Source of the DNA: Bryum argenteum | Lineage: Eukaryota; Streptophyta; Bryopsida; Bryales; Bryaceae | Direction: 5' to 3' | Length of the DNA stretch: 64,000 nt | NCBI GenBank assembly: GCA_037043015.1 | Contig: CM073323.1 | Location: 21,604,758-21,668,757 of the forward strand | Shown here: piece after piece, positions 1,705 to 64,000 of the stretch | Layout: every line of letters starts with the position of its first letter | Position numbering within the stretch: position 1 is the first letter of the stretch | Made by a program: the position numbers and the translations under genes | Notes under the pieces: model-generated | Told to the model about the DNA's origin: nothing | The model's input: only the letters and a program-made list of their open reading frames with translations | The model's database searches: none

Positions 1705-1962
1705 TTAACCCCTCAATTTCCTTGTCGCAAAATGGTCAAAGTCACAAAATTTGACCTTCCTCTGGATTAAGCTCAAAAAATCTCAATCTAAGCATTATTT
1801 GAAAGATCCAACCGTAAGATCTCAAAGTTCACTTGACATTCTCCTCTCATGCCAAATTTGAACCGTTCATTCTTCCTCATTTGTGAGATTTTAATAGTCA
1901 AAGTTGGTTGAGGTTTTCTCCTACGGGAACCGTTTTGGGTTTTGAGGAAAGTTAGGGGTTAA
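1705..1962. mobile_element. TTAA-flanked MITE, subfamily 1
   Basis: A 258-bp unit starting TTAACCCCTCAATTTCC and ending AAAGTTAGGGGTTAA. Its interior is shared with copies at 36630, 38950, 53000 and 63094, including a GATCCAACCGTAAGATC-like motif and a segment around TCATTTGTGAGATT. The ends fit piggyBac-type insertion at TTAA with a CCC-start inverted repeat. TA duplication with an ACCCC start cannot be excluded. Confidence 0.75.
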
Positions 1963-3519
1963 TGATGTTTCTATATGAGGAAAGAAAAAGTAAACAATGA
2001 ATGGTTCTTGAAGAGTAGTTTCTCCTTCACTGACCATTGGATTTTAACTCTCTCGTTGTTGGGTTGAATTCCCATCTAGGTAAAAACTTCAATTTCATCG
2101 AAATTGTAAAGAAGACTTGGCATGCATTTGAGTGCAAGAGGTATAGTTTTTGATTTGGGGTACTTTTCACCATTGTAAGGCTAGTATTTGAGCTAAGCAT
2201 TTGTTTGTTGATAAATCTCTTTGGTAAAATGATGTCATTAAGGTGAAAGTGAAAAGTTTATAGTAAAAAATAAAATAAATCACTGCAGCGGGCCATTGCT
2301 AGCATTTTCACTTGAATATTCTAATAAGAGAGAATTATTGATGATACTCATATTTTCTCCTAAATTTGTTTAACGTGCTCGATTTAACCCCGAAAAGTCC
2401 AAGCCTTTCTGGACTTCCAACACCAAAAACTGTAATTTTCTCTCACCTTGTTGGAATTGAGGTATGGTCAATTTTTCTACTGTTCTTTTGTAGTTGGAAT
2501 TGAAGAATCTCAAAGTCAAAAACTATCATGGAAAATGTCAACCATTGGATCTTCATCATTTGTGGGAAGAAAATATTCAAAGTTGGTGCAAAAGTTCTTT
2601 GGGGAATTACTCATGATACATTGTCTCCATGGTGCAAAGGGGAACTTGAAGATTCTTACTCCAAACATTTTGGTCATTTTTTTTTATTTTTTTTCATGCA
2701 GGTCATCAAGTTGGGTACACACAATGCAAGATTCTCAAGACTCATTTCACTTCTTTGACCTTCAAAATTCTAAGGACTCATTTCACTTGTTTAGTTACAA
2801 ACATATTCCCATGAAAATAATTAAAAAAGACGAAATTAAAATTGTCCCTTTTGGACTTGAAACCCATTGATAATTTCTAGATTTATGGAGGTTTTAAACA
2901 TTAGATTTTGGTTTTTGCAATTTTTTACCACATACACTTTGTAGTGTAGGGAGCACCCAATAAAAATCGCAGACAAAAATATTACTTTTTCACCCATTCA
3001 TCTATGCTTGAGCCAAAATAACAAAAAGTCATTTTGCTTAGATTTTGCCTAGGTCGGCTAGACGAAAGTGAATTTCACGAGTCTCGCCTACAGTTTTTGG
3101 CCAATTCTTATTTTAGGCTATTTTGCATTGAGATGTCGTTCAGTCTTTTGTCCCCATTAATTTGGGTAATCTGCTCTTTTGTGCAGGCTCTGTAATATTT
3201 GCCCGCAGTGTTTCTTTCTCCATTATTCTGGTCTTACCATAATTTATTGATGGCGGACTCAGAGCTTGACAGCGCGCACTCGTGTGCATTACCACAAGGA
3301 GTTTCTCACGATTAACTGCAAGTCCAGTTTGACCGAAAGAGACTTTGATTTGCCAGAGCAGGGGCTCATCTCATACAAGAGCAGGAGCGTAGTAGTATTG
3401 GGTTGTTTGGGCTAGAATCAGTTCTGAAGTAGCATGTCCATTTAGTCTACATACCAAGTTTTACTATACAAATCTCATCAAACTTCCAGTTTTGTGACGA
3501 TGACATCTTTCTTTACTAT
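1963..3519. other. Intergenic, no gene recognised
   Basis: AT-rich. Short open frames exist around 2448-2870, but the composition is low-complexity and no protein family is recognisable. I see no supported gene here. Confidence 0.5.
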
Positions 3520-3772
3520 CCCCAATTCCGTTAAAATGGCGTTATGCCGCTAAAATGGCACACCTCAACTTTTTTAACTGTAGTTCAAAACTCATGTGAT
3601 ATAACAGAACTTGAAGGTGATATTATGGAAAATCAGTGACACTGTATATAAATGAGTGATATTATTCAAAAAATTGTGATATTATAGAAAACACCATTCC
3701 ATGTGAACACATATGTATGATTTGGTGTGACAAAATGGCACATGGCATAGTGCCATTTTAACGGAATTGAGG
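3520..3772. mobile_element. MITE with CCYCAATTCCGTTAAAATGG ends
   Basis: The left end CCCCAATTCCGTTAAAATGG and the reverse complement of the right end, CCTCAATTCCGTTAAAATGG, match over about 29 bp with a few mismatches. The 253-bp interior is AT-rich and non-coding. The flanking duplication is not clear, so the superfamily is unassigned. Confidence 0.65.
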
Positions 3773-4876
3773 TTAAATTTACTTTTGAGTCGACTCAACT
3801 TACACCTCTTACCTACCAACTTCAGGGGTTAATGAATGCGATGTGAATGGTACACTTACCTCTTACCTTTTGAAGATGATGAGAGACGCTTTGGAAACAA
3901 GTCCACTTTTGGAACAATGATAGCTTTTGGAGCCTATTTCGAGCAAGAATGGAAAGCGGTTCAAGTGGGTGCGGAGGGGAGGGGACAGTCACGCGGCCAG
4001 CAGCAGCTCAGTTGCGTGCGCGGGTGATTGCCACCACCACCGTGACCCCACAACACAACCATTTCGTGGAGTGAGTCATCCATCGATCGAGGGTGTGTGA
4101 TCGAGCTGTTTGCAGCAACGCCACGCACTGGACTTGCATCTCTGCAATCAGACAGAGATGGCTAGCCGTGCCAGGGCTCTGCAAGCAGGCAAGCAAGCAA
4201 TTATCACAAACGGACGATCATTGATATCGCAATCGTCGTCACCTACCCAGTATCGTGTCTAGCTAGCTATCAGTCGATCGATCGGCTAGCTTGGCATGAT
4301 TCTGTTCCTTCCTGCTTGTTCGCCGCCGATCGATGCGTACGGTGCCCCTTCGCCTCCTTCTTTTGGCTCCTCCTCTAACTTCAGCTGGCGCTCTGGATTG
4401 TCGGTTGACAAGATCATTCGGTGACCCTCCAGGACTTCATTTCCATAAGTACCGACTCCGTTCACTCACTCACAAACCATGTCGATCGTTTCTCATTTCC
4501 TTCCGCTAGTCTATGATGCAGATTCTTCATCTGTTCGTGCAGCAAGGTTCGTCACGTACCAGACGAAGGTCTGCATCATAGCCAAGAGGGAGTAAATAAA
4601 ATTTGTGTACACGAATGCGAGTACGTCCGAGTTTGATTTGTGTGAATTTCGAATGTGAAGTGATGAACCGTGGCAGTAGAGTTGAGAATGACCAAGCGGC
4701 AGATTCCATGTGAGTAAAGAGCTTTTTGGTGTAAATGCGCGACCATTGGAGTGGCGAGGTACGTGCCCAGATTCATGGGGGCGCATTGTAACCTTCTCCC
4801 TCCTTTGCAGCAATGGAAAGCAGTACCCTGAAGTTACATCGATCGATGATGAGGAAACCTGCTGTGCTGGATCAGT
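3773..4876. other. Upstream region of the AIP2-like gene
   Basis: GC rises here relative to the preceding repeats. A 34-codon open frame starts at 4159 on the plus strand and could belong to a 5' leader or an upstream exon, but I cannot link it by splicing to the downstream gene. No other gene seen. Confidence 0.4.
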
Positions 4877-7784
4877 ATGCATCCTAAATCGACGCGAGTA
4901 ACATTGCAGGAGCGGCCTTCTCGCGTGGCGTTCCCGATGCTGCGAGGCGGCAGGGAGGTCGCGTACGGGCGCGGCAGCATCAGCATCCAGCGTCACTTGG
5001 CGGAGCTTCAAGTCAAAATCCTGTCGAAGCACACGTTCAAGATCGGGGTGGCCATTCTCACCTCCCTGATGCGCGATCGATACTCGTCGGCATCTCGAAG
5101 CGAGCAGCGGCAGGTGAACACACACCACCCAAATGATCAAAAAACCGATTGCTCTCGATCAAGATCGATAACCTGCCAGCACAGATTTGACTTTGGGGGT
5201 ATGCCCATGTAGATGTACTCCACAGTTTCGAGAGTGGCTACACTCCTGACCACGCAGTTCACGGCCATGGACTTCTGGATGGTGGGACTGGGCCTGTTCC
5301 AAGCCGCCGCGAGCGTCATCACGCAGCTGGACGAGCTCATGCACATGCGCGCTTGCATCGACCTGGCCCAGAAGTTCCTCGGCGATGACCGGCAACGGAA
5401 AGAGGTCCTCGCGGCGGCCGCGTCTCTCACCGTCACCACTTCCACTTCCGATTCCTACTGCCCCAGTGAAGCTCTGTATCCGGTCTCGCTGCAGTCGCCA
5501 CTGCAGTTGCAGTCGCAAGCAGAGGCCCAAAGCACGCTCAGCGACCTCCTGGCAAATCGCATGATGGAATCCCCTCCTGCTGAACCCGCACTGGAGCTCG
5601 ATGAGCCGGACCCCGATCTCGCTTCCGAAGGTACCGGCTCTGATCAGATAAACTTCCTGCTCAGAACCATTTATGGTCATCATTCGATTGTTTTTGAGTC
5701 TGGATTGTTGGAGCAGATGCATTGGTGAGTGATTATGATAATGTTGATAACGAGGATCCTGATTTGCAATTGGCGCGAGCCATGACGATGGAGGAGCTGA
5801 GCCAAGAGATTCAAGCTATCTTGCGCCGTGTCAATCTTACCTTCAGTGGTCGCAGCCAAGCGCTCGCCGACGAGTTCATCGGCCTTCAAGAAGCCATTCA
5901 AGCCACTCTCATGGTAACCAAGCAACCCAATTTGATGACCATATTCAATAAATTGGGAAAATTTAACACTTTGGGAGAAGTTGAGGTGTATTGCAATTCG
6001 GATTGAATCATGTATCTCATTTTCCTACTCTATTGGGAGAGTGAAGATTTTCCCAATTTATCGCTGGTGAGCATTTTGAGTTATTGATTATCTTGCATTT
6101 TTGTGTACATTGTAACAATGTGGTCGTTGGTGACACTCTCTGGTCATGTTGATAAAGAACCTTTGGGAATGTTATCTCTATGACGATACTACTCCACTTG
6201 ATACTTTTTTTTTTACAACAATTATCTACATTTGAATTGTGGAGGTGTTGTTTATACTCGTACGGGATATCAACTCATCCCACTTTATGAAAACTCTACA
6301 TTCATTTCTTTATATACACAATTTTTTTTGAAAAAATGCACATTCACTAAATTCAATGTTGATATCTACCACTGAGTCAAACCATTTAGGGGTTAAAAAT
6401 TGTGTGGTATTGATCTCAACAATAGAATACTCAATGGTTCCTATCATTTGCAGCAGGATTTTTGTTGTTGAGTTTGTCAAGTCCTAACACAATAAAGTGA
6501 GTGCAATAGAGTTCCATCATGCTCTGTTGTCACAACAATTGGGATTAAAGAACAATGTTTGAGCAAGTAGAATATCTTCACTTTATATAATCACATGATA
6601 AAGTATAACAATGATTATAGAAATAACAAAATATGCACAAAAACTACAAAAAAACAAGCAATATTTCATTGAAAGTGCTAGATTAGACACGAGAATGTAG
6701 TTGTTTACCATAACATTTGCTATTATCATCAATGTTAGTAAATTATGCACTATTTGGTAAAGGAAACTGGTTAAATTTGCAAAATGAATCATATAAGAAC
6801 GTGAAGATGATTGTGTAGGAAATCAACAATGTGCCACGAGGACCACCACCTGCAGCAAAGGAGGAAATTGAAAAGTTGGCAATGGAAGTTGTAACAGACG
6901 AAGTACTGGCTAGAATTGGTAAAGGCATGCAGTGTGCAGTGTGTCGCGAAGTGCTTGCAGTAGGAGATATATTGCAACAAATGCCATGCTTACACCCCTT
7001 CCATCCAGAATGCCTTAATCCTTGGCTGGTTAGTTATAAGACTTCTTCTCATGCAATTCATCATTTATTACTTTCAAAAATCTATAATATCTCATCATTA
7101 TCATTTAGTGACCTCTTCCTTGTAGTATTTCTATCTTTCTTATATTGTAAAGTTGGGAGAAGAAAAATTTAAAAAGAAATAAAAAAAGGAAAAAATATTT
7201 TAAAAATCCCTCAACATAGACTTTTTTACCTATATACAATTCTATGTCATAATGTCTATCGAGTACTCAGAGCAATACACCCAACCCTGCATATACAACT
7301 ACATACATAAACACTTGATTCTAAACGATATTATTTGACACCTTCATGAACTAACTAAAGGTTTCCCAAACCATTTTTGGAATTAAAATGAACATCATCA
7401 TAGCCCGTTATTAAACATCCTTGTGTGCCATCACCCATAACGAAGTGTACATTTTTAAATAAATAAAACACACAAACACCATACGTACAAAAGGATTGAA
7501 ATATTTAGTAGTTTCACAATTTACATGTTTTCTTCAAAAAATTGCAAAATATTCACTTCCATCTTATTCAATCTTTCACTAAAGAAAGTTAAGGAGGTGA
7601 CCAACATACATTAACCCACATGAAATCTTGACAGGAGAAGCACAACTCGTGCCCCATCTGTCGATTTGAGTTGCGGACTGACGACGAAGAGTACGAGCGG
7701 CAGAAGCATGAAGACCAGCAAGTGCAAGATCAAAGAAGGCGGGTCCAGATTGCACTCAAAGAAGACGAACTCCTCCGCATGTAA
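4877..7784 (+). CDS. AIP2: AIP2-like RING-H2 E3 ubiquitin ligase
   Basis: Predicted E3 ubiquitin ligase of the ABI3-interacting protein 2 family, which in Arabidopsis ubiquitinates the abscisic-acid transcription factor ABI3. Exons read as 4877-5113, 5213-5630, 5717-5913, 6819-7028 and 7635-7784; all phases agree and give about 403 codons. The N-terminal half carries the family segment RDRYSSAS...STVSRVATLL...FWMVGLGLF. The C-terminal RING is C-x2-C-x14-C-x-H-x2-H-x2-C-x10-C-x2-C (CAVC...CLHPFHPEC...CPIC), with a 606-bp intron splitting it just after NPWL. The first exon start is uncertain: ATG 4877 and ATG 4937 are both in frame, and an acceptor-like site lies near 4909. Known AIP2 is about 310 residues, so this copy is longer, mainly in the acidic linker. 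It converges with the eL18 gene. Family assignment is firm; the ABI3 partner is inferred. Confidence 0.85.
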
Positions 7785-10982: not shown

Positions 10983-12295
10983 AAGAGCTATTTATTGTAG
11001 GAAGTATACCACGGTCGTTATGTAGCCCATTCTTATCGTTATTGTACCGATTGCCGGTGTATTTAAGCTGAGATTTATCCATCCTGGTGTGGTTAAAATG
11101 TGGATTTGGTATGAATCTATGGCTGAGTTCAGTGTTGTCTCATCAGACAAAAAAATTCATATTCATTTGTCTAATTAGATGAGATGTACATTCGATACAT
11201 TGAAGACGTCTCAGATGTGCATCTCATCTAAATTTGTCTAAATTTGTTTAACGAACAAATAGGAATATTGTCTAGGAACATTGTCTGATAAGTCAAAGAC
11301 AACCCTGCCTGTATTGTGACTTAACTGTCTTCTGCCTGAATTGTGACTTTAACTGTCTTAAGATTTTGCAGATTGTCGCCGCAGATTGCCGCCATACGGA
11401 AAACAATGAATCTTCGGAAAACAACGAATCTTCGTGTTCGTCATGAGAATACATGCATTTCGCCGCCATTCGAAATACTAGGAATCTTCGTGTTCGTCAT
11501 GAGATTAAGGGCCAGCAAAGTCTTTACACTCCAGAGAACGTTTCTGGCGTGGAGGGATGTAACTGCGTAGTAGGAATTCAGATAGGCTGAAAAGTTGCAA
11601 GACAGTCGGCAGGTTGAGGCTTCGTTCAAAGTGGAGCACTCCCACGTTTCATGATTCGCATCAACTGAATTAGGAGATAGACGAAGTTACATGAGATGGT
11701 GCAGTAACCCTTAACCTTGACGTTTCCCTCGGACGAATCGTGTAAAATCACTTCAAGTGATGGCTGTAACCTAAACTCCCAGAAGATGAGAGGATTCGTT
11801 TGCGTAAAATTCTGATCGAGGGAAAACACATCGATTCTTTCAGAGGAATTGCTGTCTATTGCAGAACTACAGAGGACATTGACAGTTTCCGGGCGTGAGG
11901 GTCGGAACTTAACGAGTCGTAACCACGTTATCAATCATCATATCACTTGAGATGGGCTCCCGGTCATGCCATGAATTTCAGGCGCAAAGAGACTGAACAA
12001 TGTAGCTTCGTGAAGGTCTGTAAGTGAGATTGCCTTGCTACTCAAAAAGTGAGCATGGATGGGAAGTTCCATCGCTTCAGTAAAAGTACTGCGGTATACA
12101 AAAAGAATGGATGAAATCTCATAGAAACCCTGAAAACCCTAACAATCTCACAATGATGGTGGAGTTTCTACGCAAACACGATGAGCCTCCGCCTCAACTC
12201 ACGTTGGCCCAAATTGTTCAGCATCTACGTTCAAAATTATGTGGCAGCATTTGTCTTCGACAAATTCAGAAATGGAAAGAGAGGAAGAAAATTGG
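10983..12295. other. Intergenic with short uncertain ORFs
   Basis: Contains the foldback element at 11139-11292 and a small duplication of a GAATCTTCGTGTTCGTCATGAG-like segment near 11426 and 11481. A 102-codon minus-strand frame (11626-11934) and a plus-strand frame from 12111 with protein-like composition run here, but neither matches a family I recognise, and the second merges into the antisense of bL9. No gene is called. Confidence 0.4.
11139..11292. mobile_element. Foldback MITE, copy 1
   Basis: The ends TCATCAGACAA and TTGTCTGATAA are inverted, and the centre has an inner inverted pair, AGATGAGATGTACATT and a matching ATGTGCATCTCATCT. A related element occurs at about 23645-23775. The sequence would fold into a long hairpin. 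Boundaries are approximate and no target duplication is clear. Confidence 0.55.
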
Positions 12296-12928
12296 CTACT
12301 GTCCGATGACATTGATCTTGACCTGTGCAATCACCTCGGGGTGCAGCTTGATCTCCACCGTGTACTGCCCTACCTCGCGAACCTCCGGCACTGTCACCTC
12401 GCGCTTGTCCACTTCCTGCTTCGTGTTCGCCCGGATGATGTCCACCACGTCCTGCGACGTCACGGACCCAAATATCTGCTTCCCTTGCCCACCCTTCTTG
12501 CGCCGAATCGTCAGCATGCCCGCGCTCTGGAGCGTCCGCGCCACCACTTCTGCCTGCGCCTTCACGGCCTTGCGCTCCTCCTCCTTCCGAAGCTCCTCGG
12601 CCCGGATGGCCTTCAGAATGTCGGGAGTCGCCAGGCGCGCCTTGCCCGTCGGGTGCAAGAAGTTGCGGAAGTAGCCCGTCTTCACGGCCAGCAATGCGCC
12701 CGTCTTGCCTAGGTACTGCACGTCCTCGGTGAGGATCACCTGCCGTCGCTTCTGCACGCGCTTGTCCGCCACCACGGACAATGGCTGGTAGCTCGTCGTG
12801 GGCGACGACGAGACGGACGAGGGTTTCGAAGTGGGTTGAGCAGCACGTAGGCCTTCGAAGGAGGGCAAGAGCGCGGGCGACGCCATGGAGTTCGCCATCG
12901 CCATTTCCAAATTGCGAGAGGAAAACAT
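12296..12928 (-). CDS. RPL9: Plastid 50S ribosomal protein bL9, copy 1
   Basis: Nuclear-encoded chloroplast large-subunit protein bL9. Intronless, 210 residues from ATG 12928; the in-frame ATG at 12904 (residue 9) matches the start of the other copy and could be the true start. A Ser/Pro/Ala-rich transit-like leader of about 50 residues precedes the mature protein, which begins near KRRQVILTEDVQYLGKTG and continues with the bL9 signature AVKTGYFRNFLHPTGKA. The C-terminal domain has QIFGSVTSQDVVDII and ends KLHPEVIAQVKINVIGQ. It is nearly identical to the copy at 16952-17560 in opposite orientation; differences concentrate in the leader (for example PTSKPSSVSSSPTT against PASKPSSSSPAPTT). Divergent from the DCC gene, 339 bp between start codons. 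Confidence 0.93.
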   Translation of the reverse strand: MFSSRNLEMAMANSMASPALLPSFEGLRAAQPTSKPSSVSSSPTTSYQPLSVVADKRVQKRRQVILTEDVQYLGKTGALLAVKTGYFRNFLHPTGKARLATPDILKAIRAEELRKEEERKAVKAQAEVVARTLQSAGMLTIRRKKGGQGKQIFGSVTSQDVVDIIRANTKQEVDKREVTVPEVREVGQYTVEIKLHPEVIAQVKINVIGQ

Positions 12929-15268: not shown

Positions 15269-16951
15269 ATGTTAACTCTTTTGATGATTGGAGTTTTGTA
15301 GATGGAAGATGGGACGAGGAGTGCGGACGCAAGGTGCCGTGTGGATTGATCCTATCATTCAGTTTAGAGTTGAGATTGATGATGCATTTTATTCTTGTTT
15401 GGTAAAATTAGGAATTCAGACTTCCAAAGGGAGATCTAATGTAGACTATCATTCATCATGTGAAAAAGAGTTTTTTTTTTTTTAATAATGGTAGGTATTA
15501 CATTTGATAAGTAGATTACGAGGATGGGAATTACTCAACTAATCACGTGAAATGTGAACTTTAGTTGCTTATAAATCTCTAATTCTTATGCTGAGGTATC
15601 CATTTTTTGGATGATCAGATGATGTATAGATTGTTTTGTCGTTTTGTCGTTCCAATTGTTTATCCATTCATCAATAATATGTGAGAAAGGTTTGCAATGT
15701 GTATGGTTCAAGTTCGAATGATAATTTGTTATTGCAAATTAGTTCTATAGGTTCTTGAAAACTATAGTTTTGAAGAGGGCAGCCATTCTTAAACACTTAG
15801 TCAACTATTCTCAATTGTTCCCTCGGCCCTTTGCTTATTCAACTTATAGATTCTAACCTAGGTGGCGTGATGGCTTGGCCACACTAGGTTAAGAGCCTCT
15901 AGTCAAGCTAGCAGTCCAGCTTGGCCAATATGTAACGAAAACCTCATCCTATTATATTAGTCATTCTACAGTCAAGCTAGCAGTCCTGCTTGGCAAGTAT
16001 GTACCAAAAAACTCATTCTCTTGTATTAGCCTTTCCAAGACCAATTTAAGGCGTTTTTTAACAGGCATTTGGAATTGAATTGTATGTTATTTAGTTTATC
16101 ATGTTTGAATAAAAGGAGTTGATGGACCACAAAGTTGTGAGTTAGATTACTATGACTCCCAACACATAATTTTGTCTTTCGTTTTGTTTCGTATGAACTC
16201 AGTCAATTGTACGTGTGTATTGAGATAAAAATGCAATAATTAATGGAATGAAGTTGAGAGTTTGATTTTCTTACATGGCCTAGCATTTATGAAGTGCGAG
16301 CCTTGATGATGCACAAGTTTGGCTAGTGAAAAGTGATCAATGTTGCCTTTATATGAATTTACATCATCTATCATTGGATGCCAAACAATTTCAATTTGCA
16401 AATTAAATATCAAATAATCAGTAGAGTTTTATAAAAGAAAAATGTAATTGTTATGCATTTGACATCAACCTCTATCAATCTGATGTTAAGCTCAATTTTT
16501 CAAAACAACCTAAAGGCACTCATTTTGGCCCTCAAAGACTAAAATCCCCTTTTGTCCGCTCTTTTAAATGACCAAAATATAATAGTCAAAACTAACAATC
16601 TTATGAACACATTCACTTCTTGAACCTAAGATTTGATCACTTGAGTACATGAACCAATTTAGAAATCTTACATTTAAAACTCCGAAATCTAAAATCTTAG
16701 ATCAAACTTCTCAATCTTGTAAATTTAGGCTTCGAGTGACTCTGAAGGGTTTTGGGGTTAGGCGTTCAGGGGTTAAGGAATAGGGCAGATGACGAATGAA
16801 AATCATCCGAGCCTCATCCAAAGCCCTCTCTTCTCTCTCGCCTTATCCGAAACGATGGCTCTGCAATGGAATGCAGACGAGCCGGAATGGGGAAACACTT
16901 GGTTCTGTTCTGAAAGCCCTTGCAGGAATTTTCCGGTAGACAAATTTGGCG
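15269..16951. other. Intergenic between DCC gene and bL9 copy 2
   Basis: AT-rich, no gene recognised apart from the 5' leader of bL9 copy 2. It holds a two-copy tandem repeat at 15902-16038. The last ~150 bp share short stretches (CTCGCCTTATCCGAAAC) with the region upstream of bL9 copy 1, so the duplication includes part of the leader or promoter. Confidence 0.5.
15902..16038. repeat. Two-copy 69-bp tandem repeat
   Basis: The segment starting GTCAAGCTAGCAGTC is repeated once after 69 bp with scattered substitutions. It is non-coding. Confidence 0.7.
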
Positions 16952-17560
16952 ATGGCGATGGCGAACTCCATGGCGTCGCCCGCGCTCTTGCCCTCCTTCG
17001 AAGGCTTACGCGCAGCACAACCCGCTTCCAAGCCCTCATCCTCATCCCCGGCGCCCACGACGAGCTACCAGCCATTGTCCGTGGTGGCGGACAAGCGCGT
17101 GCAGAAGCGACGGCAGGTGATCCTCACCGAGGACGTGCAGTACCTAGGCAAGACGGGCGCATTGCTGGCCGTGAAGACGGGCTACTTCCGCAACTTCTTG
17201 CACCCGACGGGCAAGGCGCGCCTGGCGACTCCCGACATTCTGAAGGCCATCCGGGCCGAGGAGCTTCGGAAGGAGGAGGAGCGCAAGGCCGTGAAGGCGC
17301 AGGCAGAAGTGGTGGCGCGGACGCTCCAGAGCGCGGGCATGCTGACGATTCGGCGCAAGAAGGGTGGGCAAGGGAAGCAGATATTCGGGTCTGTGACGTC
17401 GCAGGACGTGGTGGACATCATCCGGGCGAACACGAAGCAGGAAGTGGACAAGCGCGAGGTGACAGTGCCGGAGGTTCGCGAGGTAGGGCAGTACACGGTG
17501 GAGATCAAGCTGCACCCCGAGGTGATTGCACAGGTCAAGATCAATGTCATCGGACAGTAG
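16952..17560 (+). CDS. RPL9: Plastid 50S ribosomal protein bL9, copy 2
   Basis: Second bL9 copy, intronless, 202 residues. The first ATG in frame is 16952 (MAMANSMASP); the frame extends upstream only through a TTG. From about residue 45 onward the protein is identical to copy 1 as far as I can read, and nucleotide differences are few (for example GGGTCTGTGACG against GGGTCCGTGACG). The TAG stop and the next ten bases are shared, after which the copies diverge. Low divergence together with opposite orientation suggests a recent inverted duplication or continuing gene conversion. Role as for copy 1. A 321-codon frame overlapping it on the same strand is a shifted-frame shadow produced by high GC. 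Confidence 0.93.
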   Translation: MAMANSMASPALLPSFEGLRAAQPASKPSSSSPAPTTSYQPLSVVADKRVQKRRQVILTEDVQYLGKTGALLAVKTGYFRNFLHPTGKARLATPDILKAIRAEELRKEEERKAVKAQAEVVARTLQSAGMLTIRRKKGGQGKQIFGSVTSQDVVDIIRANTKQEVDKREVTVPEVREVGQYTVEIKLHPEVIAQVKINVIGQ

Positions 17561-19042
17561 CCAATTTCCTTCCTCCTCTGCTTTTTAGGTTAGATTATCA
17601 TGCCGACTGTAGGAATCGAGAGTCTCTTGAGCAATTTTGTGCAATATTTTTCATGAATTTTGTATCAAAGCTATCACGTGACTGGCGCAGCCCTAGTTTA
17701 CGCAAGGGTCTTGAAGGTCGAGTTCGTCGTGTGGATTTGCATGACATCTTGTAAATGTGGAGACTCCCTTGCTCACTGTAGTACTTTGAGCATTATACCG
17801 TTCCTGCTTCCCATGCAATTTGTATCATAGCTATCAATGTGTCGCATACCCTAACTTCTTTGACGGAATTAAGGTTCAGTGAATGTATCAAACCATCTGC
17901 CTAGACTCAATTTTGAAACAGGACTATTCATTTCCACCACTCTAACCTAATCTCTTCCTTAGTAACCTCGGTACAGATTCCGACTGCGATTGAGTGCTGT
18001 CAAATGAGAATTGTTACCGCAAATAACCTCGATTGCGTGATGCCCAAGGCATCCCTTGTAGAATATTCTTAGGGCATACTCAATGGACTAGCTAAACGGC
18101 ACTTACTGTCTCACTCAGCTCCTTGTAGAGTATCCTTACATTCTCAATGGACTAGCTAAACGGCGTGCTAGAGAAATACTCCAACCCCACAAGATGTGGG
18201 TGGCCCATCACATCCGTGCTACCTACCCCTACCCCCTCCATATTGGAACCCAGAGTACTTATTAAAATGCTTTCTACATAGCTGCAACGCTTCATCATCT
18301 TTCTATCTTCATTATCTTCGACATCTTTCTAATGTATTCATCTTTTTAATTGGCTATCTTCTTTATTATTGTTCACCATCCTTCTCTTGTCTTCATCTTT
18401 TCAAATGTCGTTCTATTGTTTTCAATTCCCATAATATTAAAGTCGGACCCTTCATCTAAGTTGTTCCAAACAACAAAAACCTATCATGACTTTTAAGAAG
18501 CTTTGGGGATTGAGAGCATTCCCAACGGCTTGGCTACGACTAGCTAAATGAGCCATAGGGGGGTAGGTGAATGTAGCACCCCTTTGAATCCACACCCTTT
18601 TCTAACGGATTGATTAAAGAACCATGCTATGTTCTATATTCTCAATAGGTATGAAAGTTTCCTATATTACAAAGTGTGTGTGCAACATTTTACAAAGTTT
18701 AATTTCAACAATAATGTTTTTTTAACTCAAATTATCCTTTTCAAGTCCAAATAAGACTACATATATATGTTTTTTTTGGATTTTATTTTCAGGAATGCGT
18801 TTACAATATTTATAGTACCCAACTTCTCAAAAATCCAAGTTGAAAACTCTACTAATTTTATAAGGCAGCCTCCAAAAATTTCAAAAACAATCTTCACAAT
18901 GCTCAAAAGCACTTGGGAGACAAACTTTGGATCTCAAATGGTAGACATCCAACATTCAATTTTTGGGAGTAATTAAAAATAGTCATAATTAGGTACAAGA
19001 TCTTATGGTTGTAAACTTAGTGAAGGCAAAAAAAATAATCCA

Positions 19043-19754: not shown

Positions 19755-20342
19755 TTAACCCCTAAAGTTCCAAGAAAGCCAAAATGGTTGTTTGTGATTT
19801 TGGGCAGCCTAAATGAAGGTGTTATGATTAATATTCTTGTCTAAGATTTTCAGAGATGTTTCCTATACTAAAAGGTGTGTGTGTGTGAGAATTTTCAGAA
19901 CCAAATTTCAAAGTAAGAATTTTTCAACAAAACTTTTAGTTTTCAAGACCAAAAAAAGTAGTTTCGGCAGGTTCAAATTTATTCCTTCTATGAGATTATG
20001 AGATTCTTTTTAGAAATATGTATATAATAATACTACTACTCAGAGAATCCAGGTTCAAGCTCTTACCAATTTTTACAAGGGCAACCTCCAAAGTGTACAA
20101 GAACAAGAATCAACATTTGCAAACAAACTTGAGACATCAACTTTGAACGTTATGATCTTACAAATGGTAAAAATACAACCCCTGAAACTCAACATGGTCT
20201 TAGTGCAAGTAGCCATCTTAAAGATCTTACGGTTGAAAAAACAAAAAGAATAAAAAAATTCTGAATCATACCTCAATCTATTCAAAGTGGTCAAAAATGG
20301 ATTTTGAAGGCTCACAAGCACGCTTGGACCTTTAGGGATTAA
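19755..20342. mobile_element. TTAA-flanked element, subfamily 2, long copy
   Basis: Starts TTAACCCCTAAAGTTCC and ends GGACCTTTAGGGATTAA. The right half resembles the interiors at 31660-31928 and 54600-54858 (CTTTGAACGTTATGATCTTAC, AAGATCTTACGGTTG). At 588 bp it is longer than its relatives and may contain an insertion or be two fused copies. Confidence 0.5.
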
Positions 20343-24520: not shown

Positions 24521-26140
24521 CAGTGTGTGGCAAAACTGAGTCAACCTTGTTGAAAGAGATTATTTGGCCGTGAATTCCTAACAACTCAATAAATGAAATG
24601 ACCATTTTAACATGGAGGACATATAATATGGAGTGTATTAGTTGACATAGCATCCATGGTGACATATAAAAAAGTTATAAGGAGATACATGTCTTTCAAC
24701 ACATACACTTGGCTTGACTCAGTTTTGCATGGCATGCCATAATAAATGCAATGAAGTGGTAAAAAATGGATGGAAGACTTTTATGACCAGATTGGCATGG
24801 GCACAAGGAGTGTCTATCTTGACATACTCCATGTCAACTTAGTGCACATTGTAAGCAGAGTGTGAGGACAGACCATGGTGCACTTAGATGAGCTTTGTGG
24901 TAGTGCTCGAAAAGACCTTGATAACTCCATTTTGGTGATGTTGCAAGCTGGTATGACTATAAGAGATGTAGCACATGAGTTGCAGGTGTCTCAGAGCCAT
25001 GTTGCAAGACTTAGAAAGAAGATATTATGTGATTTGTCAGCTAGTAGTGGTGGTAGACCACAAGTGCTAAGTGATGCGAGAAGAGAGCATGTGTTCGTCT
25101 TTGTCACATCGAGGAGGTTTTGAAAATGCTACACAAGTTGCCCAACATGTACGCAAGGAATGCCATGTTCTTGTGAGTGTTGATACGGTCACGAAGGACT
25201 TTACGTGCGGCGGGCTTGAGATCAAAAGTGAAGCGAAAGAAACCAAAATTGAACCGAAAACACATTAAGGATCGACTTGAATTTGCTAGGCGCCATCAAC
25301 ATTGGACCGTTGGTATTTGGAAGCATGTCATCTTTTCTGACGAGACCAAGGTAAATCGATTTTGCTCAGATGGTCGTAGTTGGTGTTGGATTCGCAATGA
25401 ACAATCTTGTGATTCAAGACAAGTGCAAGAGACTGTGAAGTTTGGCGGTGGTTCAGTGATGGTATGGGGTTGCATGACATTCCATGGCCCTGGTATGTTA
25501 TGTAGAATCGAAGGAAGAATGGATCAACATCAATATAAAGAAATCTTGCAAAGAGATTTATTGTATACCATCTGTGCATATGATCTTGATCCTTCAAATT
25601 TGATTTTTCAGCATGACAATGATCCCAAACATACAGCAAAAAGTGTTCGGCAATGGTTGAGATCACAAAATTTTAATGTTCTTAAGTGGCATGCACAATC
25701 TCCTGACTTGAATCCAATTGAGCATCTTTGGGGATCAAACGTCGTCTTAACCGAAGATGAAAGGGCTCCAACGGGAATTTTAGAATTGTGGGAGCGTATT
25801 GAGGAGTGTTGGGCTTCTTTAGCAATAGAGGAGTGTAGGAGGTTGTATGAAAGCATGCCAAGGCGGATCCAAGCAGTTTTAGCCGCTAAAGGCAAGTGGA
25901 CAAAATATTGAGTTGCTTTTTGATAGTGGATGCAAAAGTGAGTCAAGGAACATAGTTTCCTTTAAATGTAATTTTCTTGTACATTTCAATGTAAGAAGGA
26001 ACTTCTTCTCCATCAAATTGTAGCCCATTCAAATTGCTATATTGCACAATTTACACATTCTAAAAATCTATTGCCAAGTTTTCCACATTGCTAATCAAAT
26101 TACGAATTTCAAGAGTTTGACTCGGTTTTGCCACACACTG
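24521..26140 (+). mobile_element. Tc1-type (DD34E) DNA transposon
   Basis: A 1,620-bp element with TA on each side (24519-24520, 26141-26142). The inverted ends start CAGTGTGTGGCAAAAC and match at 23 of 24 positions. A second inverted pair lies about 190 bp inside each end: CTTGACTCAGTTTTGCAT near 24713 and its partner near 25930 (ATGCAAAAGTGAGTCAAGG). This gives an IR/DR-like arrangement known from some Tc1 elements such as Sleeping Beauty. A single transposase gene lies between, now frameshifted. Both ends are intact, so this copy could in principle be mobilised in trans. Confidence 0.93.
24875..25911 (+). pseudogene. Tc1-type DD34E transposase, frameshifted
   Basis: Transposase of the element at 24521-26140. 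The N-terminal part (from ATG 24875) has a helix-turn-helix region, AGMTIRDVAHELQVSQSHVARLRKK, then GGRPQ. The frame then shifts near 25090 and again near 25185, where LRAAGLRSKVKRKKPKL resumes the family pattern. The catalytic core is visible as VIFSDETKVNRF (first Asp), FQHDNDPKHTA (second Asp) and SPDLNPIEHLWG (Glu), with 34 residues between the second Asp and the Glu. A further pair of compensating shifts alters the sequence just after HLWG. The end SMPRRIQAVLAAKGKWTKY is typical of Tc1. Several indels make it inactive as it stands. Confidence 0.9.
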
Positions 26141-29674: not shown

Positions 29675-29705
29675 CCCACAACGGTGCTAGGAGATGAGCC
29701 GCTTA

Positions 29706-31659: not shown

Positions 31660-31928
31660 TTAACCCCTAAACGACCACGGCCACCGATTCGGCGTTTACG
31701 GTCAAGGCAAAAAAAATTTTACAGTCAACTTCAAACGTTATGATCTCACATCTAGTGATGATCCAACGGTTGAAAATTTTCACACTACTACCAATGGTAG
31801 TCTACTTCAAGATCCTACGGTTGAAATTATCAAAAAGTTTCAAAAATATTGAACGTACCTCCATTAGTACATAGTGGTCTGTGTTGGGATTTCAAGCTCC
31901 CAAAACATCGTGGATCTTTAGGGGTTAA
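31660..31928. mobile_element. TTAA-flanked MITE, subfamily 2
   Basis: 269 bp, starting TTAACCCCTAAACG and ending GATCTTTAGGGGTTAA. The interior (CAACGGTTGAAAATTTTCAC, CAAGATCCTACGGTTGAAAT) is shared with 54600-54858 and partly with 19755-20342. Confidence 0.75.
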
Positions 31929-36629: not shown

Positions 36630-36878
36630 TTAACCCCTAAAGGTTGTTGATGCAAAATTGCAAAAATGAACATTCTCTTACTTCAGGCCTAAAAACTCTC
36701 AATCTAAGAATTATTTGGAAGATCCAATCGTAGGATCTTGAATTTAACTTAACCTTCCACTCACTTGCCAAAATTGAACCGTTGATTCTTCTTCATTTGT
36801 GAGATTATAATGGTCAAAGTTGACTGAATTTTGGACTCCAAAAAGCAGTTTTCGCTTTCCTGAACCTTTAGGGGTTAA
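36630..36878. mobile_element. TTAA-flanked MITE, subfamily 1
   Basis: 249 bp, starting TTAACCCCTAAAGG and ending CCTTTAGGGGTTAA. The interior matches 1705-1962, including the segments around AAGATCCAATCGTAGGATC and TCATTTGTGAGATTATAATGG. Confidence 0.8.
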
Positions 36879-38008: not shown

Positions 38009-38671
38009 TTAACCCTTAAAGGTCCGAGGGGTTTAACAAAAAACTTAGATGTGTTATAAAATATGGATTCCATAACTCGTATGGTATTACACTCCAAAGA
38101 TAGTATAAAGACCTTAAACTCTAGATTGGATATGTATTTACAGTTAATTTTCCTCAAATAGGTAATATTCGGTTTATAATGAATACAAAAGAGTAAAATT
38201 TTGAAAATCAATATAAAATGTAATTTCTATTATTAGTATTTGGACATTGATATGATTGGCTAAAGTCACATAGTATATGTTAAAATGGAGAGAGGCCACG
38301 AGTAATAAACCTATGAGTAACCTTATTGATTTCCCAAAATAATAAGTTTACTTACACTAAGAAAACCTCGTCCTAGTTGTTTCTGAAAGCTTATTTTGAA
38401 CAATCTATGAATCCAAACAAGGCTATGTAAATTGAATGTGGTTCCCAACTCACCAAACTTCTACAATGTTGAAAAAAATTCCAAAAAAAAACTTTTTTTA
38501 TCCGAGTACAACTCCTCAAAATTTGAGATTGATCATAAAATGCTTGAATGGGCTCCTACGGGTTAAGTACTGGATCCATACTACAGTAATATACTTCAAC
38601 ATTATAAGATGAGAAGAGGGCAAATTTGAGGGGTAAGCATGCAAATAGTGCCTTTAGGCTTTAGGGGTTAA
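38009..38671. mobile_element. Possible long TTAA-flanked element
   Basis: Starts TTAACCCTTAAAGGTCC and ends GCTTTAGGGGTTAA, 663 bp apart. The interior does not match the short subfamilies, so the two ends may not belong to one insertion. Confidence 0.35.
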
Positions 38672-38949: not shown

Positions 38950-39217
38950 TTAACCTCTAACTCTCCTTAAAACCTGAAACGAGTTTCGGAGGTTCCCGCA
39001 GGAGAAAAACTCAGCCAACTTTGACCATTATAATCTCACAAATGAGGAAGAATGAACAGTTCAAATTTGGTATGTTAGATAAATGTCAAGTGAACTTTGA
39101 GATCTTACGGTTGAATCTCTCAAATAATGCTTAGATTGAGATTTTTTGAGCTGAATCTAAAGGAAGGTCAAATTTTGTGACTTAGACCGTTTTGCAACAA
39201 GGAGAGTTAGGGGTTAA
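38950..39217. mobile_element. TTAA-flanked MITE, subfamily 1
   Basis: 268 bp, starting TTAACCTCTAACTCTCC and ending GAGAGTTAGGGGTTAA. Closely related to 53000-53267 across the whole interior. Confidence 0.8.
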
Positions 39218-52999: not shown

Positions 53000-53267
53000 T
53001 TAACCCCTAACTTTCCTTGAAACCCGAAACAGGTTTTGGAGGTTCTCACAGGAGAAAAACTTGGCCAACTTTGACCATCATAATCTCACAAATGAGGAAG
53101 AATGAACGGTTCAAATTTGGTATGTGAGAAGAATGTCAACTTAACTTTGAGATCTTACGGTTGAATCATTTGAATAATGCTTAGATTGAGATTTTCTGAG
53201 CTTAATCTATAGGAAGGTCAAATTTTGTGACTTAGACCGTTTTGCAACAAGGAAATTTAGGGGTTAA
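53000..53267. mobile_element. TTAA-flanked MITE, subfamily 1
   Basis: 268 bp, starting TTAACCCCTAACTTTCC and ending GGAAATTTAGGGGTTAA. It is the closest relative of 38950-39217; differences are scattered substitutions. Confidence 0.85.
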
Positions 53268-53538: not shown

Positions 53539-53540
53539 TA

Positions 53541-53582
<42 letters not shown>

Positions 53583-54338: not shown

Positions 54339-54599
54339 ATTTGAATTTGTACATTCCCGCGGTGTTGCCAAAAACTCAAGAAGGTATATACTCACCGTTC
54401 ATTTTTCCCCTAAACCATATACAAGAAACGTGGTGCATGTTTTACCAAATCCTTGATTTCTACCTTCTTCTAGTAAATAAATTGCATGAAGGTTCAAAAA
54501 GCAAAATGAGTGTCTAAACTTTTGCATGGACATGCTCAACTTAGTTATATACATGGAAAAAAAATATAAACTAGATGTTTAAGGTAATAAGCATTACGT

Positions 54600-54858
54600 T
54601 TTCCTTTGCACAAAGAGGACTATGTTTGCCAAAAAAAAGATTGCATCAACTTTGAATGTTATGATCTTACAAATGGTAAAGATCCAACGGTTGAAATTTC
54701 AGCCACTACCTCTAATGGTAGTTCTCTTCAAAATCATACGGTTAAAATTTTCAAAAAAGTGTAAAGAATATTCTCATACTCCAAATTTTACAAGGTGGTA
54801 TGAAATTGCAATTTTGGAGTTTGGAGCTCACAAAACACCATGGTAGTTTAAGGGTTAA
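54600..54858. mobile_element. TTAA-family MITE, subfamily 2, degraded left end
   Basis: The interior matches 31660-31928 (AAGATCCAACGGTTGAAATT, CAAAATCATACGGTTAAAAT), and the right end reads TAGTTTAAGGGTTAA. The left end cannot be placed precisely. Confidence 0.6.
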
Positions 54859-55617: not shown

Positions 55618-55850
55618 TTAACCCTTAAAGGTCTGAGAGTGTCGTGGCGGCCAGTAGAATACGGTGTATTTTGGTTGTATTTGGAGTGAATGCACACCTT
55701 TGATGGGTTTGAGTTCAAAGAAGAAGTTGACATTTGAATTAATGCGGTTCTAGTGAGCTATTACGATTCCAGTTTAGAGTTTCTTGTTGGTAGCAAATCC
55801 TAATTATACGACAGCGTACATACTATCCCCAAGGGACTTTTAAGGGTTAA
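55618..55850. mobile_element. TTAA-flanked MITE, divergent copy
   Basis: 233 bp, starting TTAACCCTTAAAGG and ending GACTTTTAAGGGTTAA. Its right TTAA is also the left TTAA of the element at 55851-56215. Confidence 0.6.
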
Positions 55851-56215
55851 CAGTACAACATATGGCACTCAAGGACAACAACCATTCATACATATCGACC
55901 ACAATGTCGGAGAAAATCAACTTTTGACTGTATGGACCACTGTTTTCTAACCATAGACAGTCGGTACATCTGCAAAACTGAACACGGAAGTTAGAATTTA
56001 AGTTGAAAAATCTAACATCTTAAAATATCTCTTTCTGTTAGATCAGCTAAGACAATACGGATCGACAGAGGAACCGAGGTCTGCAGTTGTGTACAACAAT
56101 GATAAAAGAGTTAGGATATTTCTTAAGGTTTTCTGCATTTCCGTAACCAAAGACTAGTCAGACTGATTGTTATTTCCATAAAGGAGTATAACCTTGAGTG
56201 CCATATGTTGTACTG
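55851..56215. mobile_element. 365-bp element with perfect 24-bp inverted ends at TTAA
   Basis: The ends CAGTACAACATATGGCACTC... are perfectly inverted for 24 bp, with TTAA on both sides (55847-55850 and 56216-56219). The interior is unique in the window and non-coding. The target duplication may be TTAA or TA (then 25-bp ends starting ACAG). Perfect ends suggest recent insertion. Confidence 0.85.
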
Positions 56216-56219
56216 TTAA

Positions 56220-57490: not shown

Positions 57491-57496
57491 TCAACA

Positions 57497-58130: not shown

Positions 58131-58440
58131 GGAGTGGTACCTGAAGATGAACCATCGAAAGAGTCGATGGCACCGAGGGCCTCCAACCAGAAGACGGCAT
58201 ATCGACGACTTGCGCTGGAGCTTCACTTCAGCGAGCGGAGGAAGAGGACGAAGATGACGCTTGAATCCGGAGCAGCATTCCTCGACACCTTCGTCGTCTG
58301 GTAGCTGCAGCCATGAGCAGATTTTGGACTCCAAAATTCGAGAAGCGTAGTTAACCTATTACGGTAAAAAAGCACATGGAGCTCGAATGTGCTTTTTTCC
58401 AAGTGCATTCGCAGGTTTCGAAACCCTAAGCAGCAGACTC
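58101..58440 (-). other. Possible exon(s) of an unidentified minus-strand gene
   Basis: A telo-box (AAACCCTAA near 58420) is followed on the minus strand by a 61-codon frame from ATG 58408. An alternative frame reads SKICSWLQLPDDEGVEECC... and ends at a donor-like CAG|GTACC near 58140. Composition is coding-like, but no family is recognised and no downstream exon was found. Confidence 0.25.
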
Positions 58441-58670
58441 CACCATAGTTAGGGCATGGAGGCTATTACAGCCCATCCTTAGATTATATTGAACTCACTT
58501 ACATAAATAAAGCGAGTGCATTCGAACTCCGCTCGCATGATTGTACCGATCACCGAAACCTTGATAGATAGCTTCAGCTCCATTCAATACTCGCAGGTAT
58601 TGCTCAATGTGCAGAGTACTTTCAAAATGATGATGAAGCATGTTACTTGAACGGCAGTAAGATGAGTAAA

Positions 58671-59420
58671 TTGGATTTACGCTTGCTTGATTTACTGAAA
58701 CTCTAAGTGACATCAAAGAAACTGGTCAATTCTAGCAGTAACATACTGGAGTGGCGCTCACACGATTTACCGAAACTGTCTGTGACATCAAGAAACTGGT
58801 CAACAGCGATCGACTTGGAACCGCGCTTGCATGGTGTACCGAATCTGATTAAAATCAAGAACCCGGTCAGCTCTGGCAATAGCACAATGAAATTGCGCTT
58901 GCACGATCCACCATCGCTCTAATTGACATCAAGCAAAAGGTCGACTCCGGCAAACACAGTCGACTCCAGCAATGGCACATTGAAACTACGCTTGCATGAT
59001 ATTAAAAAACATGATATAAAAAAAACATCAATCCGAATCAAGAAACTGGTCAACTCCAGGAATAGCATATTAGAGCGGCGCTTAAATGATTTACCGAAGC
59101 TCTAATTCACATCAAGAAACAGGTCAATAGCAATTTGGAACCGCGCTTGCATGCTGAACGTAATTGAAATTAAGAAACCGGTCAACTTTGGTAACAGCAA
59201 ATTGGAACCGCGATTGCATTATGTACCGAAATTCTGATTCACATCAAGAAACAGGCCAATAGCAATTTGGAACCGCGCTTGCATGCTTCACCTATATTCC
59301 AATCGACATCAAGAAATCACAGACATCAACTGTGGTAACAGCAAATTGGAACCGCGATTGCATTATTTACCGAAAGTCTGATTGTCTGACATCAAGAAAC
59401 TCGTCAACAGCAGAATTGAG
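58671..59420. repeat. Tandem array of about ten degenerate 58-109 bp units (mostly near 74)
   Basis: Units share GACATCAAGAAACTGGTCAA, then GGTAACAGCAAATTGGAACC, GCGCTTGCATGATTTACCGAA. Starts fall near 58710, 58785, 58852, 58926, 59035, 59109, 59167, 59241, 59306 and 59389, so spacings are 75, 67, 74, 109, 74, 58, 74, 65 and 83. Many spacings are not multiples of three, which argues against a conserved coding repeat, although both strands keep open stretches of up to about 70 codons. Confidence 0.85.
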
Positions 59421-61751: not shown

Positions 61752-62892
61752 ATGGCGAGTCGGATCAGAGAGGTAAGCGACTGTTCGATGAGTGTGCCTG
61801 AAATCATTTTTCTGTTCGATCGTTATTCATGATCGTTACTGTTTAGACTGAAGCTAGTTTATTACTGCATGACATTCCTGCAGTTGTTTGTAAGAAAGGA
61901 CTGTGGATGAGTGCTGTGAGTGTGGGTGATGATATCGCTTTGGTGGATCGATGCAGATGTTTACCAGAGACTCGGATCCGGTGTACCGGGTGAACTACGC
62001 CCAGCATCAAGGCTCCAGCAGGAGCATGACGCATCATCATCATGGTCCACTTCCGATCGTCGAGCTTCAAGTGCCGATGTGCTGTGAGAAGTGCAAGGAG
62101 AAAGTACAGGAGGAGTTAGAGGACATGGAGGGAGTTCGGACAGTGGTGTGCGACCAGCTCCACCAACGCGTCACCGTAGCTGGGTTCGTAGACCCTCTCC
62201 GCGTGCTCAAGCGGGTGAAGAAAGTGAAGAAAAAGAGCGAGTTTTTCACGCAAGGCAGCTACATCAGCCCCAAATCCCCAAGCCAGCACCGATACCCAAA
62301 CCAGCAGGATACAGTCCGCCCTTTGATGCACCCGGATAGCGCAGTCCGATATGCAGGCCAGCCTTTGAGCCACCCAGTCCACCACCAGCATAGCTCAGTC
62401 CGACATGCAGTCCACCCGGTCCACCAGGATAGCGCAGTCCGATATGCAGGCCAGCCTCTGGTCCACCCGGTCCACCAGGACGCAGTCCGATATGCAGGCC
62501 AGCATCCAAAGCACCAGGATAGCTCAGTGCGCTACGCAGGGCAGGATCCAGTGCGTTACTCAGGGCAGCAGCAGGGGCTGCAGCGCACGAACTCATTCGG
62601 CCGCGAGAGGGGGGGTCTAGCGCGGCAACCTTCCTTCGGCGAAGTGGCCCATTACGAGCAGCACCACGACAATCATCAAGAGTCGCGAGACTACTACGGC
62701 GTTCGTCGCATGCCTTCGTTCAAAAAGCATCGATACCACGATGCGGAGTATGTTTCCATGGGCGATGAGATTCATCATCATCACCATGGCCAGCAGCAGC
62801 GTCCTGGCATGCTGCAATCACAAGTCTCCTTCTCCAAACTGCCTGTCAGAAATCCCCACTACGTTCAACCGGCTTATCATGAGTATGTTTAA
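61752..62892 (+). CDS. HMA-domain metal-binding protein with His-rich repeats
   Basis: Heavy-metal-associated protein of the plant HPP/HIPP type (metallochaperone-like). Two exons, 61752-61772 (MASRIRE) and 61957-62892, in phase; 318 residues. The HMA domain lies near residues 35-95: VPMCCEKCKEKVQEELEDMEGV, with the M-x-C-x-x-C metal site, then VVCDQLHQRVTVAG and RVLKRVKKVKKKSEFF. It is followed by a tandem region of about six units of HPVHQDSAVRYAGQ type and a C-terminus with His runs (IHHHHHG). There is no C-terminal isoprenylation box (ends YHEYV), so it fits HPP rather than HIPP. The His-rich repeats could add metal-binding capacity (inference). Without exon 1 the frame also opens at 61951. 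Confidence 0.88.
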
Positions 62893-64000
62893 GACATCAC
62901 TTCAATGGTGGCTTCCGAATAATCGATGCCTACCTGGGTGTGTATCGATCTGTAAGTTGCAGACTTTTTAGAATAGATTTGTAGATAGTATGTTCTTCAA
63001 TCTGTAAGCAATTTTGATACTTGGTAAGAAGGTGCAAAGTTTCGTTTATGAATATACTCTGATTATATTCTGAGTCGGATAAGCCGGTTGGTGCTAAACC
63101 CCAAAAGATCCTTGATACAAAATTGTCTAAATTATCACAAAGGACCTTCCCCTACTTCAAGCCAAAAAAAACTCAATCTAAGCATTAATCAGAAGATCCA
63201 GCCGTAGGATCTTGAAGTTAACTTGATCCTTTGCCCATAAGACAAATTTGAACCGTTAATTTTTCTCCAATTTTGAGATTATAATGATCAAAGTTGGTCA
63301 AAGTTTCCGTGCGAAAATCCCAAAGAGCCATTTTGGCTTTCTTGGATCTTTAGGGGTTAATTTTGGTGATAGCAATTATGTTTGAGCTTTTACGTTTCTG
63401 AAGTTGATATTTGCATGACTACATAATTTCATATACTGTAAAGGAGCTTTGAGAAATGGTAAAAATGATACTTCAATATTACCATGTGACATGTAAGAAA
63501 TATTATATATTACATACCATTAGAATGACCTTAAATTTAAATCAAATCCCATTATTTCACATTTAAAAGAAGGAAGGTGAGAGTGGGCTTGCGCATTTTT
63601 TATTGCCATTGACCACATGTGACTCCAAAATTGTGAAATTGGAGCCTTTTAAGGTGTGGCAATAAAAGGTGAGTATATGGTAGGAACACCGAAAGGTAGC
63701 CGCCCTTCATAATTGTGGAGGTCAAATTCATACAATCATACTGCTTTGAATGTTCCCATCACCCCACCCTAGATGTTCCTGTAATCCCTAACCGTCCTAG
63801 CCAACTTTTGGCTAGAAAATATATTTTCAAAAAAAGTGTTATAGATGGAAATGAAGGTAATTCTTTTAAATTTCAATTGTACAATCTTATAGTATACTTG
63901 TTGTAGGTCATGCCGACCAAATTTGACTCATGAAACTTCACAGACTTTTTCATCCACTATTTCACCTTTTGCATTGGAGTAACTTCATTGCAAGTTCAAT
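62893..64000. other. Downstream of HMA gene; one MITE
   Basis: Presumed 3' UTR, then a TTAA-family element at 63094-63360 and AT-rich DNA to the window edge without a recognised gene. Confidence 0.5.
63094..63360. mobile_element. TTAA-family MITE, subfamily 1, degraded left end
   Basis: 267 bp; left end CTAAACCCCAAAAG (one change from TTAACCCC), right end GATCTTTAGGGGTTAA. The interior matches 36630-36878 (GATCCAGCCGTAGGATC, TGAGATTATAATGATCAAAG). Confidence 0.75.

What the first reader, a model, noticed from the sequence alone, without database searches (positions are those of the whole stretch)
1705..63360. Dispersed MITE family bounded by TTAACCCCTAA...TTAGGGGTTAA (piggyBac-like signature)
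Seen: eight to ten elements at 1705, 19755, 31660, 36630, 38009(?), 38950, 53000, 54600, 55618 and 63094, with shared ends and at least two interior subfamilies. TTAA plus a CCC-start inverted repeat is the piggyBac pattern. piggyBac elements are, to my knowledge, rare or absent in land plants. The superficial likeness of the end to the plant telomere repeat is notable.
Basis: partly seen in the sequence, partly recalled or inferred. Interest (0 to 1): 0.75.

Follow-up and report, generated by a model that had tools for sequence, protein, structure and literature searches.

The report
Recently active piggyBac family in moss
The repeated short elements are miniature offspring of a piggyBac "cut-and-paste" jumping gene that has spread recently through what appears to be a moss genome; piggyBac is well known from animals but thinly documented in land plants.

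Summary
Observation and piggyBac reading both hold. The window has 26 TTAACCCCTAA-type ends (≤1 mismatch) against 1.03 expected, bounding nine paired elements of several subfamilies. The genome has 2902 exact TTAACCCCTAAAGG ends, reversed control 2. Elements of ~5.7 kb with the same ends encode a piggyBac transposase: PF13843 3.5e-76, PDB matches piggyBat and piggyBac, DDD conserved, Cys-rich C-terminus. Five full-length copies on four contigs differ by 0–5 substitutions. Most MITE subfamilies share DNA with the autonomous 3' end. Empty sites show one TTAA where occupied ones show two; one copy has TTAT directly repeated, excluding a TA duplication. 116 PF13843 matches were scored; 11 representatives form five lineages. 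The host is a plant, very probably a moss (structure identities recalled). The telomere likeness is most likely coincidence. A known superfamily; host, recency and scale are the surprise.

The parts
1705..1962 (-). MITE, subfamily A (258 bp), TTAA on both sides
   Evidence: 2524-2764 aligns to element 5324-5554
19755..20342 (+). 588-bp internal-deletion derivative: matches autonomous 1-67 and 5476-5704
31660..31928 (+). MITE, subfamily D (269 bp)
36630..36878 (-). MITE, subfamily C (249 bp), 96% to genome copy L070
38009..38566 (.). 558-bp non-autonomous element; only ends shared with the others; 83% to L005; a further right end lies at 38671
38950..39217 (+). MITE, subfamily A (268 bp)
53000..53267 (+). 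MITE, subfamily A (268 bp); the query
54457..54858 (+). left-truncated copy of the autonomous 3' end (72%)
55618..55850 (.). 233-bp MITE of a separate family (TTAACCCTTAA ends), 96% to L003
63095..63360 (-). MITE, subfamily B (266 bp), left end degenerate

Best explanation
The elements are non-autonomous piggyBac elements (MITEs) mobilised by piggyBac transposons native to this genome. A ~5.7-kb element with perfect 18-bp terminal inverted repeats (TTAACCCCTAAAGGCCCA, TTAA included) encodes a DDD transposase with a C-terminal Cys-rich domain. Inferred mechanism: the transposase binds the ends and probably a conserved subterminal module of ~105 bp, excises the element and reinserts it at TTAA, which is duplicated; internal deletion made short elements that keep ends and module, and these were cross-mobilised to high copy number. 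Shown: shared ends, transposase domain, TTAA and TTAT duplications, shared subterminal DNA in subfamilies A-E, near-identical dispersed copies, one copy with catalytic and Cys-rich domains in one open frame. Inferred: binding, excision chemistry, cross-mobilisation, present-day activity.
For: Ends. Elements with the same ends. PF13843 3.5e-76; PDB piggyBat 9c0f 1.6e-27 and piggyBac 6x67 6.3e-25 with LTIDE, VTMDN and GVDVADQ aligned to their counterparts; Asp at 142, 233, 350 of the L106 frame. Cys-rich domain in one frame with the catalytic domain in L063 and L106. 18-bp perfect TIR. Empty sites: L075 nest, no gap at the junction against intact siblings (one 1-base gap elsewhere); L093 site, 33 listed repeat copies span the junction, letters read for 4 of 33, all a single TTAA; L062 site, 2 of 2 a single TTAA. 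TTAT/TTAT copy L092. Shared 3' subterminal module at about 70-76%. Five copies 0-5 substitutions apart over ~5.7 kb; all 40 scored matches to one 501-bp end at 99-100% (3552 candidates).
Against: No transposition or expression was observed. Of seven ~5.7-kb copies whose frame was seen at the C-run before the Cys-rich domain, five (L062, L091, L092, L093, L094) lose that domain's frame and two (L061, L063) keep it; L061 and L062 also have shifts inside the catalytic domain and L063 one upstream of it. Many copies may be defective, or the assembly may hold errors. The 38009 and 55618 families share only ends, so another piggyBac lineage could drive them. The one match to the L063 site, in a copy 85% identical, reads TAAA, not TTAA. 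For the other 12 of 15 sites, all nine window sites among them, no match spanning the junction was listed (40 of 2477 candidates scored). The upstream part of the L106 copy was not fetched.
Confidence: 0.96

Rival explanations
1. The elements are Stowaway-like Tc1/mariner MITEs with a TA duplication that happen to prefer TTAA.
For: A Tc1/mariner element with DDE_3 and HTH_Tnp_Tc3_2 domains lies in the same window (24521-26140); TTAA contains TA, and a single TTAA in empty sites does not by itself separate the two.
Against: That element has different ends (CAGTGTGTGGCAAAAC). L092 has TTAT directly repeated on both sides, which does not fit an element that begins with A beside a TA duplication. 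The partner with matching ends has a PF13843 transposase.
Confidence: 0.01
2. The elements belong to another superfamily recalled to use TTAA (Kolobok or Sola3), or to PIF/Harbinger with a 3-bp duplication.
For: A TTAA duplication alone does not separate Kolobok, Sola3 and piggyBac (recalled).
Against: The internal transposase matches PF13843 and solved piggyBac and piggyBat proteins, with no other Pfam family at E 0.001. A 3-bp duplication does not fit TTAT/TTAT. The genome was not searched for Kolobok, Sola or Harbinger transposases.
Confidence: 0.02
3. The ends are telomere-derived and their likeness to the plant telomere repeat is functional.
For: The end contains CCCTAAA, one plant telomere unit (recalled).
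Against: In the copies printed the unit is single, not arrayed, and sits at the edge of a discrete element beside TTAA. CCC starts are ordinary for piggyBac (PMC10813416 and PMC2872659, passages).
Confidence: 0.01

Closest known systems
piggyBac of Trichoplusia ni (PDB 6x67/6x68)
   Same: Catalytic domain aligned over 412 query residues; TTAA target; CCC-starting ends; Cys-rich C-terminus (T. ni details partly recalled).
   Different: Element ~5.7 kb against ~2.47 kb (PMC10813416, passage); plant host; ends CCCCTAAAGG; very large complement of short elements.
piggyBat (PDB 9c0f)
   Same: Best PDB match, 1.6e-27, with the GVD motif aligned and an insignificant second stretch over the Cys-rich part.
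   Different: Animal element (bat, recalled); distant in sequence.
Coral CMITEs with piggyBac-like AmiPB elements (PMC2872659, passages)
   Same: piggyBac-type MITEs with TTAA duplication and CCC ends, a conserved internal region, tandem arrays, one family linked to an autonomous element.
   Different: About 100 bp, animal host; the paper leaves the internal region's origin open, whereas here the shared module aligns to the autonomous 3' end.
Pokey with mPok MITEs of Daphnia (PMC3849761, PMC4912750; search listing only)
   Same: piggyBac family with MITE companions.
   Different: Inserts at a specific rDNA site among other places; animal host.

Membership tests
piggyBac superfamily | PF13843 (DDE_Tnp_1_7) transposase between the same ends | tested here: met
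   3.5e-76, 1.6e-62, 1.1e-58 in L063, L062, L061; 1e-75 in L093
piggyBac superfamily | DDD catalytic triad aligned with piggyBac/piggyBat | tested here: met
   alignments; all three positions D in 10 of 11 representatives (L087 has E at the second)
piggyBac superfamily | C-terminal cysteine-rich domain | tested here: met
   in one frame with the catalytic domain in L063 and L106; frame lost in L062, L091, L092, L093, L094
piggyBac superfamily | TTAA 4-bp target-site duplication | tested here: met
   in 30 subfamily-A loci L031-L060 (L031 is the window's own copy; found with a query that includes TTAA) 28 left ends are TTAA, and 29 right ends plus L050 beside an altered TIR
piggyBac superfamily | Short TIR beginning CCC | tested here: met
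   18-bp perfect TIR, TTAA included
piggyBac superfamily | Seamless excision via hairpin (recalled) | not testable with these tools
   needs an assay
piggyBac MITEs | Sequence shared with an autonomous element beyond the ends | tested here: met
   for subfamilies A-E; not met for the 38009 and 55618 families, which share only ends
Tc1/mariner (Stowaway) | TA duplication | tested here: not met
   TTAT/TTAT copy L092
PIF/Harbinger (Tourist) | 3-bp TTA/TAA duplication | tested here: not met
   4-bp direct repeats TTAA and TTAT
Kolobok / Sola3 | their own transposases in the partner element | tested here: not met
   only PF13843 found in the partner; the genome was not searched for those families

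The most novel reading that the evidence does not exclude
A land plant, probably a moss, hosts an endogenous piggyBac system that is still transposing, alongside at least five long-diverged piggyBac lineages and some 2,900 exact element ends, with the largest contig about ninefold depleted: a first native active plant piggyBac.
Probability: 0.55. Interest if true: 0.75.

Novelty: new member of a known kind. Interest (0 to 1): 0.6.

Why it matters
piggyBac is a main tool of genome engineering and, as far as I know, has been studied almost wholly in animals. A plant genome with near-identical copies, abundant short derivatives and several lineages would offer a natural, plant-adapted piggyBac to test, show that the superfamily can thrive in land plants, and give a clear case of how MITEs arise from an autonomous element.

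Tried and rejected
Tc1/mariner partner: the window's own Tc1 element has other ends. TA duplication: rejected through L092. Telomere origin: rejected as above. The pattern TTAACCCCTAANNNNNNTCAAACG gave 0 matches. The local empty-site screen (110 joined sites, 204 matches across a junction, output partly cut) mostly returned MITE-in-MITE similarity; besides L075, already seen, L018 gave two tandem-repeat matches, one with an intact TTAA and one without. Upstream frames of the element (L061 1030-1437, 1200-1532, 1560-2006) have no Pfam match at E 0.001. tRNA and promoter scans gave nothing useful. Ten paper searches were run (31 and 35 did not name piggyBac); in what I saw of their listings no paper describes piggyBac elements in a moss, and one apparent hit (PMC10619864) held the word 'piggybacking'. 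In correcting this report against the calls, the element at 38009 was re-bounded from 38671 to 38566.

Full report
Observation. The motif TTAACCCCTAA with up to one mismatch occurs 26 times in the window against a mean of 1.03 in 100 shuffles. The element at 38009 is bounded at 38566, where genome copy L005 also ends, though a perfect right end follows at 38671. The tenth position is a left-truncated copy ending at 54858. A further degenerate 1449-bp pair lies at 2384-3832. Several single ends remain unpaired.

Genome scale. The window lies on contig C3 of a 258.8-Mb genome in 25 contigs. The 14-mer TTAACCCCTAAAGG occurs 1459 + 1443 times there, its reversed control 0 + 2 times. A search with the element at 53000-53267 gave 43 matches; 40 of 2227 candidates were scored, and most full-length matches are 93% identical to the query.

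Autonomous partner. End pairs about 5.7 kb apart in the list led to L061, L062 and L063. All three have exact 14-bp ends, TTAA included, and a frame matching PF13843 (3.5e-76 in L063, 1.6e-62 in L062, 1.1e-58 in L061). L063's 553-residue frame matches piggyBat (1.6e-27) and piggyBac (6.3e-25) in the PDB, with the three catalytic aspartates aligned (their roles in T. ni are recalled); they lie at 142, 233 and 350 of the L106 frame. L091, L093 and L094 have exact ends and an 831-residue frame; L092 has that frame but TTAT flanks. A one-base difference in a C-run decides whether the Cys-rich domain stays in frame: it does in L061 and L063, not in L062, L091, L092, L093 and L094. L061 and L062 have other shifts inside the catalytic domain, L063 one upstream. 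The copy at C2:2426161 is listed with a 916-residue open frame, and the 1540 bases fetched read through catalytic and Cys-rich domains without a stop; its upstream part was not fetched.

Recency. L061, L062, L091, L093 and L094 (contigs C2, C2, C4, C9, C7) differ pairwise by 0-5 substitutions in about 5700 aligned bases; L063 on C1 differs from them by 97-99, about 1.7%. All 40 scored matches to a 501-bp end are 99-100% identical (3552 candidates). The indels between copies, many in short runs, could be real or assembly error.

Target duplication. (a) In L075 a 249-bp MITE sits inside a 268-bp MITE; the joined flanks with one TTAA align to siblings L074, L073 and L077 with no gap at the junction and one 1-base gap elsewhere. 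(b) A search with the joined flanks of 15 sites listed 42 matches: 36 span a junction (33 for L093, two for L062, one for L063) and six are single flanks; 12 sites had none spanning the junction (40 of 2477 candidates scored). Letters were read for 7 of the 36: four for L093 and two for L062 show a single TTAA, the one for L063 (85% identical) shows TAAA. (c) L092 has TTAT directly repeated on both sides, so the 4 bp belong to the target, and a TA duplication does not fit. TTATCCCCTAAAGGYCC occurs 18 + 17 times in the genome; both sides were read only for L092. Other piggyBac elements with non-TTAA duplications are in print (PMC10813416, passages). (d) In 30 subfamily-A loci, found with a query that includes TTAA and counting the window's own copy, 28 left ends are TTAA (exceptions GTAA and TAAA), and 29 right ends, with L050 showing TTAA beside an altered TIR.

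MITE origin. A ~105-bp block in subfamilies A-D matches positions ~5480-5604 of the 5704-bp element at about 70-76%; 19755-20342 keeps both ends (1-67 and 5476-5704), a plain internal deletion. The 38009 and 55618 families share only ends; the L081-type lineage has TTAACCCTTAAACGCCC ends, so other lineages may drive some such families (inference).

Diversity. PF13843 gave 116 scored matches out of 775 candidates, and none in 14 control genomes; the only control named in a like search is a cyanobacterium, so that control is weak for eukaryotes. Ten fetched loci plus ours fall into five groups with less than 50% identity between groups in the catalytic domain. End positions suggest L081 and L085 elements of only 2.2-2.3 kb. 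Several old lineages argue against a single recent arrival, but no tree with other organisms could be built.

Host. The genome has 90 matches to the chlorophyll a/b-binding family, some in clusters. The window encodes a protein that matches chloroplast ribosomal protein bL9 (5mlc, 6.5e-49). One LHC protein matches chain 9 of 8htu and 7xqp best (3.4e-128, 1.3e-126; next 4.8e-102), structures that I recall as Physcomitrium patens photosystem I with the moss antenna Lhcb9; an Lhca3-like protein matches 8htu, 7xqp, 7ksq and 6l35 best, which I recall as P. patens too. The host is very probably a moss. Its size fits Bryum argenteum (259 Mb, as quoted in PMC11704416, part 1 of 3 read); a similar size, 262 Mb, is tabled for Hypnum curvifolium (PMC13120521, table section), with an N50 of 20.7 Mb. 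The species was not established.

Literature. piggyBac is listed for land plants or angiosperms in PMC4438587 and PMC10004981 and in repeat tables of PMC6890710 (1230 copies) and PMC13180808 (passages). None of the passages that I read describes an intact plant element. The library holds only open-licence papers and the listings were partial, so absence from print is not shown.

Verdict. The kind is known; host, recency and scale are the surprise.

Noticed in passing
window 24521-26140: A complete-looking Tc1/mariner element (TA flanks, CAGTGTGTGGCAAAAC ends, DDE_3 and HTH_Tnp_Tc3_2 domains), with its coding frame broken upstream of 25177; unusual for a plant as far as I recall.
   Followed up: partly
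G000 contig C1 (44.1 Mb): Only 62 of 2902 exact TTAACCCCTAAAGG ends lie on the largest contig (1.4 per Mb against 13.2 elsewhere), and 5 of 116 scored PF13843 matches. It could be a sex chromosome or differ in chromatin.
   Followed up: partly
window 12281-12913 and 16943-17575: Inverted duplication (97%) about 4 kb apart; the second arm encodes a plastid-type ribosomal protein bL9.
   Followed up: partly
G000:C5:8.16-8.41 Mb, C5:14.73-14.76 Mb, C2:25.06-25.09 Mb: Clusters of weak chlorophyll-binding-family matches that look like ELIP-type gene arrays (identification recalled).
   Followed up: no
L058, L060, L052: Neighbouring MITEs share a single TTAA, as if one inserted into the terminal TTAA of another.
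   Followed up: partly
L087: A PF13843 copy with E instead of D at the second catalytic position and one stop in the domain, possibly decayed.
   Followed up: no
window 58651-59383 and 26600-26779: Degenerate repeats: copies about 65-80 bp apart (with larger gaps), and a 14-bp tandem array.
   Followed up: no
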